A stretch of DNA of 64,000 nt from Toxonevra muliebris (lineage: Eukaryota > Arthropoda > Insecta > Diptera > Pallopteridae), in NCBI GenBank assembly GCA_963691655.1, contig OY829326.1, positions 82,515,235-82,579,234 of the forward strand, written 5' to 3'. The notes below the pieces were generated by a model. That model made no database searches, had not been told where the DNA came from, and saw nothing but the letters and a program-made list of their open reading frames with translations. Position 1 is the first letter of the stretch, and the number at the start of each line of letters is the position of its first letter. Below are positions 26,475-30,200 of this stretch, piece by piece. Made by a program: the position numbers and the translations under genes.

Positions 26475-27286
26475 TTAAAATCTTAATTGCCTCCGAGTGT
26501 AACTCCCGCCCGTCGTATCACCGTCGTCGTTCTCATCGTCACTTGAATCGATAATATTGCGCAGGGTCAGCGCATGAAAATCATTGAGCGTTTGCTCAAA
26601 TAGATCGATTGTTTGCTGGTCGGCCTCGGATATTACGTTTTGCGTTGCATCTAGTAAATCCTCGGCCGCTCCGAGCAGTTCGTGACTTTCACGTGTAACG
26701 GCCGACGCTCCCATGATCGGCGACGTTACCGGTGTCGAGGTAGCCAATATGGTGCCACTAAAATTTGAATGATTCTCACCGCTGGATTGCGCCGTGGCAT
26801 CGGAGGCATTGGAAGAAGTAGCTACGCTGCGAGACAGCTCATCGGCATGGGCGAGTGTTGAACCTATTATGTCGCTAGCAATGCGTATGGCCGCATCGGT
26901 CGCAGCAATAGTCGAAACGAAATCACTTGCGTTCGCTGGGTAATGCCGCATACTGTAGTCCAGTGGTAAAGTTAAATCGAGAAATGCGTCCATGCTCGAT
27001 GACGGACTGCCCTGCTGGCGACTTTGGTACACTTGTGAGGCGAAATTAGAGTCGGTCGTCACTGTATTGCCTTCAATGCGCAAACCAGCAACACCTTTCT
27101 TGGCAATCGTTGCCAAGTCACGTTTAACACGACGACAACGCGTTGGCTCATTTTGGCGTTGTTGCACCATAGCCTCCAAGTCAACGATATATACGTAGCC
27201 GGCCACAAGAATCGTGCATGATTTCTCACCCTTTTTATATGCATCCTCAATGTCTTGGCTAGTGCGGTCGTCGTACTGCCACCAAC
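26475..27286 (-). CDS. RNF146-like terminal exon of the long form: WWE second half and tail
   Basis: Acceptor ttctttcag (minus) directly before GTTGGTGG, in phase with exon 2. It encodes GWWQYDDRTSQDIEDAYKK, LVAGYVYIVDLEAMVQ, RCRRVKRDLATIAKKGVAG and about 190 residues of Ser/Ala/Thr-rich tail with an acidic patch near the end. Open frame extending upstream of 27286 is intron sequence. Confidence 0.9.
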
Positions 27287-30200
27287 CTGAAAGAATCAGA
27301 ACCGAAAGACACACATAAAAATAAAAATAAACACAAGTAGGTACATTTATTTTTATTGGAATCATCTCATGAATGACACAATATGGCACTCTGAATAAAT
27401 AGCACATCTTTTCTAAAAAGTTAAGTAGAAAATGCCATGACATTAAAAATAAGGTTTTGATATTCCAGCCACTCCCTTGGTTGGCATATGCTTCGAACGA
27501 CGTATTTTTCGGCGTCGCAATGTCATATTCTGAGGGTACTGAACCATGTCCGCAAAATCGATTGTATAAATTGCACCGCATACGAGTAGATCGTATTTGC
27601 TACCTTCCTCGAGATCCACTACTTCGGTGCCGTATTGCGCCTGGTATGCCTCCTCGATCTCATTGCATGAACGCTTGTCATATGCCCACCAACCCCCTGT
27701 GGGAGTGCGCCAGTGTTAGTTGAATGATGGAAAATGTGACCTAATAATTGATTAAACTCACCGTTACGTCCTTCGTAGAACCATTGGTAACCATCCTCCG
27801 TAGTTTTCGTCGTGCAAATGTCATCAATCCCGTTAACTAATTGTGGATGATCCAAAAATTCCGGAGGAATCTCTCTTCGACACATCGCACAGCGACGATT
27901 TTTGTAAGCCACGCCCTGTAACAAACAAACATAGACAAATTAAATTTCAAATTTACAATCCAAGTGATGGATTCAATGAGTCTTTCATTACACAGTGCAA
28001 CAATTGTCGGGTCACCACGTATGGCCGCTACATGAAATAGAAACTAAAAACTAACAAAGCCCCCACTATTTTATGACTACCTGAAGTTGGCACACACTCA
28101 AGTCAATTTTTCCACCTTTGGCGATGTGTAAATCAGTAAAATGGATCAATGTATCAATGGAACAAGTGGAATTAAATATTTTATGTTATATATAAACAGG
28201 TTAATGAGCAAATGTAGTCATCACAACAACAGTGTATATAGAGACGGGCAAATCAGACGGCCGTTTCGGAATCCGCCACAATTCCTCGTCAGTGATCTTA
28301 GTGATAGTTCTTAATCTTTCAATATCCTATATAAGCTACTAATATTTGAAATCATAACCCAGAATTACGGATTTGATTCCAAATATCTTCACTGAATAGA
28401 GATATTGAAAGAAACTACCACTACCGGCCGTCTGATTTGCCCGTCTCTATATACATTGTTGTTGTGATGACTACATTTGTTCATTAACCTGTTTATATAT
28501 AACTTCAAATAACGAAATTGACATGAACTTAAGTCATGACTTTGAAAATTAACCTCTAGATTTAATTTTCATAGTCTCCTAAAAAACTATCATTAAATAT
28601 TTTATGTTTGAACAGATATACAAAGAAAAATAAATAAATAAAAAATACTCTTCAGTACATTTTCGCATTTTCAAAAGTCATATTTTGTTTGCTTTGATGC
28701 GAAATTGCTACAAACATAACAAAAATAGTTTAAATTGGTCGCGTTCAGAAGGCACAACTGAGGCGAGCGTGTCTTCTGAACGCATAGCTGTGAGTTTTTG
28801 ATCATCACAACTGTTGGCATTCGGTCGTCATTTTTTCCATCATATTATTTTTCTGCTCTTTCTGGCCAACAACAAGTAGTCTCAAAAATTTTGACAGTTC
28901 GCAGAAAAAACTCACGTTGTTTACTTTTGTTTGACAGCGTCTTGGTGGATTTTAGACGACGGCTGGGACCCGATATCTTCTTATGATTCGGCGGCTATCA
29001 TAAAAATATTCAAATATTATATTTTAAATAACCCTATTATAATCAAATTTATCTTTGTAATATTATTCATTTCATATTATGTGCTGTGTCGATCAATTGC
29101 ACGGGAACGGGTTAGCCGATAAATTACGGCAGACAGCAAGAAAAAAATGGCAGCGAGTGAAGTTGACTGCGAGTCGCAAGACGCAGGTTTTTGGCTTTGA
29201 CAGATTATGTATCATGTCGTTCAGAAGAAAAACATGTTTATTTCCAACAGTAGAGAATGTAAAAACAACAGTTGGAAATTTTCTGTACCTTCTGAACGCG
29301 ACCATTATTGCTCACATTCTGGTACACTGAGAAGTTAATAAAAAGGTTAGTCTTTCGTCATATCGTCCCGTTACTGGATGCCATGATCCAATTTTGAAAA
29401 TTTTCAAAACGCAATTTCTTCAATAAGAAATTTTAGTACTTAAAAAAATAAAAAAAAAAATTGTTTCTGAATTTTAGATGGTATAGTAGTTTTTGGCTTA
29501 CCCTAAGAAAAGTTAGCTTTTATAATCTAAATAAGCGTGTAATGCGTAAAATTTCTGTTAAAATGGCTCATACCCATACATTTTGTATGAAGCTGACTGA
29601 AATACGCAGCGCACTTACCCAAACCTATTTCTATTTTCTATTTTGACATTGCGTAAAGAGAGAAATTTGAGAGGGGAGAGTTTTTTTTCATAGAACACAG
29701 CAAATAATATAAATAAGCAACTTCTAATTTTAATATGTTTGACACCATGGCGAAATTATAACAGGTGATAGCAGCGTCAGATCTGTCTTCTCAAATTTTT
29801 TTTATATGAAGATAATCTTAACTGTCAAAATCTTTGTTTTTTTTTTTTTTTCCCCCATGCATTTGTTCTTGTGCTTTTGCCAATTACGATTTTTAGCAAC
29901 AACAAAGTAGCGTGTTGTTATTATTACGTTGTACTTGTTGTAATGCTGCTACCACCATGTTAAATCCGCCTTGGTTTGACACCTAGAAACTGACAGTATT
30001 TTGTGCTCTATTTCAGTCAGGTATTGCGTTTGAGTGCGCTGCGTAATTTTGCGCATACGCATTACGCACTTATTTAGGTTGGGCTGTTATGTTCAAAATA
30101 CTTTTTGTTGAAAAAGGTAAAATTTAAATATATATAATATATAATGCTTTCAAAAGAATTCTGTGTCGGACGTTAAGAGTCTCATTATATCTAGTCGGCC

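What the first reader, a model, noticed from the sequence alone, without database searches (positions are those of the whole stretch)
26475..27915. Duplicated WWE exon gives an RNF146-type ligase two alternative C-termini
Exon 2 ends mid-WWE in phase 1. Two downstream exons can both complete the domain: 27443-27696 (stops soon after KGVAG) and 26475-27286 (continues to a 190-residue acidic tail). The short exon has its own AATAAA pair. The two halves differ at many surface positions, so the isoforms may read poly(ADP-ribose) differently as well as differing in tail-mediated partners. RNF146 is usually described with one WWE domain.
Basis: partly seen in the sequence, partly recalled or inferred. 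Interest (0 to 1): 0.75.

Follow-up and report, generated by a model that had tools for sequence, protein, structure and literature searches.

The report
Insect RNF146 has two alternative WWE endings
A fly gene for an enzyme that tags proteins for destruction when it senses poly(ADP-ribose) carries two interchangeable copies of the exon that completes its sensor, an arrangement that looks old and widespread in insects and that I did not find described in the papers I could search.

Summary
The minus-strand gene encodes an RNF146-type RING-WWE ligase. Exon 2 stops inside the WWE domain in phase 1, and two downstream exons each complete it: a short one (S, 27443-27696; 268-aa protein, own AATAAA pair) and a long one (L, 26475-27286; 454 aa). 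Both pass Pfam's WWE cut-off equally well. The duplication is not only dipteran: S-type halves occur in Diptera, Coleoptera, Hymenoptera, Neuroptera, Hemiptera, Orthoptera and apparently copepods. In a tree without the column that named the groups, 56 S and 63 L rows (human with L) are separated by one branch (97/95). S evolves faster than L (372 of 378 species pairs), yet 49 of 59 scoreable S rows keep all five recalled iso-ADP-ribose contacts. S proteins mostly end within 14 residues of the domain (45 of 48). Against this, some Drosophila S records, three of them from the obscura group, lack a complete second half. Best reading: one gene makes a tailless and a tailed PAR-activated ligase by competition between polyadenylation and splicing. 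No RNA or biochemical test was possible; S isoforms already sit in databases as unstudied records.

The parts
36209..36607 (-). coding part of exon 1: N-terminal region and first part of the RING finger; donor AAA|GTGAGT
   Evidence: of the four exon-1 ends joined to exon 2 only 36209 gave an open frame
27916..36208 (-). intron 1 (8.3 kb)
27762..27915 (-). exon 2: rest of the RING and first part of the WWE domain; ends in phase 1
27697..27761 (-). 65-nt intron before the S exon; GTGAGT donor, CTAAC branch-point-like site ending 18 nt before the exon, T-poor acceptor
27443..27696 (-). S exon (coding): alternative second part of the WWE, then six residues after GVAG and stop
27346..27357 (-). 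two AATAAA poly(A) signals of the S exon, 59 nt before the L exon
27287..27761 (-). 475-nt intron to the L exon; it contains the whole S exon and its poly(A) signals
26475..27286 (-). L exon (coding): canonical second part of the WWE plus 201-residue tail

Best explanation
This is an RNF146 gene, apparently the fly's only one, with two homologous, mutually exclusive terminal exons that arose by an old duplication of the exon coding for the second part of the WWE domain. Exon 2 is spliced either over a 65-nt intron to S, where the message is cut at the AATAAA pair, or past S and its poly(A) site to L (inferred from anatomy). S gives a minimal RING-WWE ligase without a tail; L gives the canonical WWE plus a long tail. 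Both should bind iso-ADP-ribose and be switched on by poly(ADP-ribose) (inferred from kept residues and fold). They probably differ in the surface around the domain and in what the tail recruits, so the balance of early polyadenylation and splicing sets the mix of two PAR-dependent ligases. The confidence covers the gene structure, the two isoforms and PAR binding by both; the functional difference is less sure (see rivals).
For: Intact frames, matching phase and signals. Both WWE versions recognised. The two exons are the only matches in the assembly to each other's half. Relatives: S-type proteins in tephritids and many insects. In 17 of the 18 pairs of separate S and L records that I matched by species name, the two proteins are identical from their start to the junction, as splicing of one gene predicts (12 of 13 flies; 5 of 5 beetles). 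S-L split 97/95 with the naming column left out, 99/92 after removing seven long rows and thinning; the window's S and L as sisters rejected, p 0.02. Contacts in S: W114 62/62, Y144 61/62, Q153 61/62, R163 60/60, K175 51/60. W114 and Y144 were part of the pattern that cut the pieces; with all such columns left out, Q153, R163 and K175 alone are still kept more than random columns, p 0.0012. Predicted S folds of relatives match human RNF146 WWE (3v3l TMt 0.82; 0.81 with the Drosophila insertion). S ends within 14 residues of the domain in 45 of 48.
Against: No RNA reads from this species were available; the S message is inferred. Many relatives are automatic gene models: 10 of 61 S proteins join S and L in one product, and P0020 (D. 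grimshawi) joins part of S to L. Of the S-like records, P0040, P0069, P0217 and P0073, P0077, P0080, P0090 (dropped before the counts) lack a normal end; P0077, P0080 and P0090 are obscura-group Drosophila, so S may be decaying or mis-modelled there. Ten of 59 rows keep only four of five contacts; K175 is changed in 9 of 60. Mosquito and moth entries among the listed hits are L-type (120 hits listed per large search), so S is not seen everywhere. The tree has only 63 columns.
Confidence: 0.8

Rival explanations
1. S is a decaying, unused duplicate of the L half.
For: S evolves faster than L in 372 of 378 species pairs; its acceptor is T-poor, 3 T of 20 against 11 for L; seven S-like records lack a normal end, three of them from the obscura group of Drosophila.
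Against: Open frame, splice sites and poly(A) signals intact in the window; pocket residues kept across insects and copepod-like sequences; S-type proteins on short contigs, such as P0005, 246 aa, longest contig 1025 bases, too short for a gene with an 8-kb intron, so probably cDNA (inference).
Confidence: 0.08
2. Both exons are joined in one message, giving a ligase with one and a half WWE domains, as gene models of beetles, wasps, ants and a cricket suggest.
For: 10 of 61 S-type records run S into L, and P0020 does so with part of S.
Against: In the window S has its own stop and poly(A) signals. An S-to-L join in frame would need a cryptic donor inside S; six GT sites of the right phase exist, the most donor-like, AAG|GTAGCA, at S-exon offset 93, which would cut the domain. 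Beetle and fly records with separate isoforms end just after S.
Confidence: 0.05
3. S and L have the same PAR-reading and ligase activity; the duplication serves only to remove the tail, and the sequence differences in the domain are drift. (This shares the gene structure of the best explanation and differs in the last step.)
For: Kept contact residues and fold; S mostly ends just after the domain.
Against: Simple early termination would not need a second copy of the half-domain; S keeps features of its own over long times, such as Ile at 146 in 59 of 62 rows; Drosophila S gained a long acid-rich loop.
Confidence: 0.3

Closest known systems
RNF146 (Iduna), PAR-directed RING E3 ligase
   Same: RING followed by WWE, KGVAG end, iso-ADP-ribose contacts; best PDB match 4qpl RNF146(RING-WWE)/UbcH5a/iso-ADPr
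   Different: two alternative second WWE halves; the S form has no tail; no enrichment of tankyrase-binding-like motifs in 156 L tails, whereas human RNF146 has five putative ones (PMC11852910 and PMC8080362, passages)
Deltex family, tandem WWE ligases
   Same: repeated WWE sequence within one ligase gene (tandem arrangement described in PMC11269756, passages)
   Different: Deltex carries two whole WWE domains in one protein; here one protein has one WWE, whose second part is chosen by splicing
Mutually exclusive homologous exons and alternative last exons of insect genes (recalled, for example Dscam and tropomyosin; no call)
   Same: homologous exons of equal phase exchange part of one domain
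   Different: here the exchange is within a poly(ADP-ribose) reader, and it also decides whether the tail is present

Membership tests
RNF146 family | C3HC4 RING followed by a WWE domain | tested here: met
   Pfam hits in both products; 4qpl is the best PDB hit, E 9.3e-44 (S) and 1.1e-60 (L)
RNF146 family | iso-ADP-ribose contact residues (human Y107, W114, Y144, Q153, R163, K175; list recalled, source paper not held) | tested here: met
   present in both window products by the alignments; Y107 lies in shared exon 2; across S rows
RNF146 family | C-terminal tankyrase-binding motifs | tested here: not met
   none in the window's L tail; canonical pattern in 6 of 156 L tails against 4.2 in shuffles. 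The patterns catch 5 of 8 motifs copied from the table in PMC8080362, so some could be missed; PMC9688111 (passages) reports possible motifs in many orthologs. I count it as a variable trait, not as grounds to exclude membership
RNF146 family | ligase activity switched on by poly(ADP-ribose) | not testable with these tools
   needs purified protein
mutually exclusive terminal exons | homologous exons with the same phase, each complete with its own end | tested here: met
mutually exclusive terminal exons | messages with either exon, not both | tested here: inconclusive
   separate S and L records with identical upstream parts in other insects; 10 of 61 S records are joined models; no reads for this species

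The most novel reading that the evidence does not exclude
Insects and their crustacean kin run two kinds of RNF146 from one gene: a tailed, slowly evolving ligase and a tailless, fast-evolving one whose WWE surface was reshaped, up to an acid-rich disordered loop inside the domain in Drosophila, for a different source of poly(ADP-ribose) or a different set of targets, perhaps outside the tankyrase-Axin route. Polyadenylation choice would then decide which PAR-dependent degradation programme a cell uses.
Probability: 0.33. Interest if true: 0.78.

Novelty: new variant of a known kind. Interest (0 to 1): 0.57.

Why it matters
RNF146 is a central ligase of PAR-dependent ubiquitination (PMC11852910, passages) and mediates tankyrase-dependent degradation in Drosophila too (cited in PMC9688111, passage). 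The passages I read do not mention two forms. If one gene makes two PAR readers with and without a tail, rescue with one cDNA tests only one of them. The pair is also a natural experiment: one RING and half-domain joined to two anciently separated halves shows which WWE residues PAR sensing really needs.

Tried and rejected
Recent, lineage-specific duplication: rejected by the S-L split and the AU test. Tail as tankyrase tether: no motif enrichment. Whole S joined to L in one message: not supported in the window. Papers: ten searches for RNF146, Iduna, the WWE domain or CG8786 (fly gene name as I recall it) with splicing, isoform, exon duplication, tankyrase, Drosophila, Tribolium or insect terms; from the listings and the passages I opened in seven papers I saw no description of the two forms. 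The three CG8786 papers were seen as listings only. Four papers are not held, among them the Drosophila RNF146 study, so this absence is weak. dN/dS of the S exon could not be done: I had no DNA of relatives. The second homologue search, restricted to the cricket S half, gave only six hits. D. melanogaster itself: its only listed entry I identified by name (P0046) is L-type; whether it has S I cannot say.

Full report
What is there. The finding lies in a minus-strand gene of a 491-Mb assembly (96 contigs; the window is C1:82515235-82579234), by its relatives a fly. Its coding parts are exon 1 (36607-36209), exon 2 (27915-27762) and two alternative last exons, S (27696-27443) and L (27286-26475). 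The joins keep the frame and give proteins of 268 and 454 residues without a stop. Exon 2 ends in phase 1 inside the WWE domain. S joins as N-G-G-W-W and L as N-G-W-W, so S has one extra glycine at the junction. Pfam recognises a WWE domain in both products, 70.8 and 71.8 bits against a cut-off of 21.1. The best solved structure for both is human RNF146 RING-WWE, 4qpl. A search of the assembly with either half finds only these two places at E up to 0.001; a search with the shared RING part did not complete.

Signals. The S intron is 65 nt, with donor GTGAGT and a CTAAC site ending 18 nt before the exon. In positions -5 to -24 the S acceptor has 12 pyrimidines of 20 but 3 T, the L acceptor 15 and 11 T. 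After the S stop there are 156 nt to the L exon, holding AATAAA at 27357-27352 and 27351-27346, the last ending 59 nt before L. Thus the S poly(A) site and the L acceptor lie within one short stretch, which points to competition between cutting the message and splicing onward. This is inference from anatomy.

How old it is. The first homologue search returned 1230 proteins, 120 listed, the third 770, 120 listed; with six from the second I hold 232 distinct proteins. Their second halves, with those of the window and of human RNF146, gave 241 pieces: 61 with Cys, 177 with Ala, two with Ser and one with Val at human position 140. I took the 61 plus P0005 (Ser) as 62 S rows and the 177 as L rows; P0183 (Ser) and P0187 (Val) are in neither count. 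Six pieces had no recognisable strand motif and were dropped: five S-like starts (P0020, P0073, P0077, P0080, P0090) and one L-type (P0137). Two S rows, P0025 and P0101, are both from Lutzomyia. Because sorting by position 140 is circular, the tree left that column out: 56 S and 63 L rows, human among L, lie on either side of one branch, 97/95, in 98% of 200 bootstrap trees (rows thinned for similarity, S rows P0108, P0217 and P0025 dropped; P0183 fell with L). Without seven long rows and thinned further, 39 S and 43 L rows are split with 99/92 support, and holding the window's two exons together is rejected, p 0.02. The tree rests on 63 columns and many forks are open; the bootstrap of the larger tree had not fully settled.

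Who has it. By record names, S occurs in Diptera (Ceratitis, Bactrocera, Zeugodacus, many Drosophila, Lutzomyia), Coleoptera (Tribolium, Leptinotarsa, Photinus, Dendroctonus and others), Hymenoptera (Temnothorax, Atta, Polistes, Cotesia, Microctonus), Neuroptera (Chrysoperla), Hemiptera (Homalodisca, Cacopsylla) and Orthoptera (Gryllus) (orders from my knowledge). P0179, labelled Tk08297 and so probably the copepod Tigriopus kingsejongensis, and the unnamed P0121-P0126 are also S-type (the species is my reading of the label). Mosquito and moth entries among the listed hits, and the named Cochliomyia and Haematobia entries, are L-type, which may be loss, incomplete annotation or the cut of the list. 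In 17 of the 18 pairs of separate S and L records that I matched by species name, the two proteins are identical up to the junction; in the exception, D. montana, they agree for the last 100 residues before it.

What is kept and what changes. Over 28 species or loci with both types (the window, those 18 pairs, eight joined models and Lutzomyia), S pairs average 50% identity, L pairs 71%, and S is less alike in 372 of 378 pairs. Against this drift, S keeps W113 and W114 in 62 of 62, R119 61 of 62, Y144 61 of 62, Q153 61 of 62, R163 60 of 60 and K175 51 of 60. The five contact columns average 0.96 conservation against 0.60 for all columns, p 0.0008 by permutation; 49 of 59 rows without gaps keep all five, 10 keep four, and three rows have gaps. 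W114 and Y144 were in the search pattern, so I repeated the test on the 49 columns that were not: Q153, R163 and K175 average 0.945 against 0.506, p 0.0012. The list of contacts is from memory; the source paper is not held. Of 61 S proteins of relatives, 10 are joined models and 3 lack the GVAG end; the other 48 end a median of 5 residues after it, 45 within 14. The loop between helix and strand is 9 or 10 residues outside the higher flies, 10 in the unnamed fly-like P0004, 19 in the window, 20 in tephritids and 35-199 in the Drosophila and Scaptodrosophila rows (P0005 not printed there). In the 18 Drosophila loops measured, 14-28% of residues are acidic and acidic outnumber basic in each.

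Results against. Seven S-like records lack a normal end: P0040, P0069 and P0217 and P0073, P0077, P0080 and P0090. P0077 (D. subobscura), P0080 (D. miranda) and P0090 (D. pseudoobscura) are one species group, although P0071 (D. guanche, the same group) still has the strand and KGVAG; for D. rhopaloa, a complete S record (P0033) exists beside the odd ones (P0069, P0073). S may therefore be decaying in some flies, or these gene models may be faulty; I could not tell.

Structure. AlphaFold models of complete S proteins from relatives give a confident WWE in Bactrocera dorsalis (ten-residue blocks of 75-95 pLDDT). In Drosophila ananassae the strands after the insertion lie mostly in blocks of 79-96, but the last strand is in a block of 59; the insertion itself is 55-58 over its middle. 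Both match human RNF146 WWE bound to iso-ADP-ribose, 3v3l, with target-normalised TM 0.82 and 0.81. The whole-model TM-scores are low; the N-terminal parts are of low confidence. The window's own spliced protein was not modelled.

How it probably works. Reviews state that iso-ADPr binds between WWE and RING of RNF146 and activates the ligase, and that the human C-terminal region binds tankyrase through several motifs (PMC11852910 and PMC8080362, passages). S retains what the first needs and lacks a tail. L has a tail, but canonical tankyrase-binding-like motifs in 156 L tails of relatives and window (6 with a hit) hardly exceed shuffles (4.2; with extended patterns 6 against 7.2), and the window's tail has none. 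The patterns recognise 5 of 8 published motifs, so this is not proof of absence, and PMC9688111 reports possible motifs in many RNF146 orthologs (passage). So the model I commit to is two PAR-activated ligases from one gene, differing in tail and domain surface, with the partner of the tail unknown.

What is new. Isoforms of the S type are already in databases, many as predicted isoform entries, so the molecules are not unseen. I did not find a paper that describes the exchange or its age in the ten searches named under Tried and rejected. The kind of thing, homologous alternative exons, is well known; its use in a poly(ADP-ribose) reader over this span of arthropods is the new variant.

Noticed in passing
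window 28177-28511: 87-nt inverted repeat arms, 95% complementary, 161 nt apart, in intron 1: looks like a small non-autonomous transposable element.
   Followed up: no
window 28736-29304: 21-nt inverted arms (TGGTCGCGTTCAGAAGG...), 527 nt apart, in intron 1, again transposon-like.
   Followed up: no
P0204, P0208, P0225 (Panulirus, Cherax, Homarus): Short decapod RNF146 forms (211-218 aa; two labelled isoform X2) with a diverged second half and a basic end (GRKRK) lie on a long branch on the L side: perhaps a separate exchange in decapods.
   Followed up: partly
Drosophila S-type records, for example P0006-P0019: Acid-rich, apparently disordered insertions of 54-198 residues in the 18 records measured, inside a folded WWE domain, at one loop, differing widely between species.
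   Followed up: partly
P0077, P0080, P0090 (D. subobscura, D. miranda, D. pseudoobscura): S-like records whose second WWE half is missing or scrambled, in one species group: possible ongoing loss of S.
   Followed up: partly
window 7616-8266 (-), 15381-16105 (+), 45616-46242 (+): Open frames that look like pieces of a transposase and of retrotransposon reverse transcriptase (my reading, not searched).
   Followed up: no
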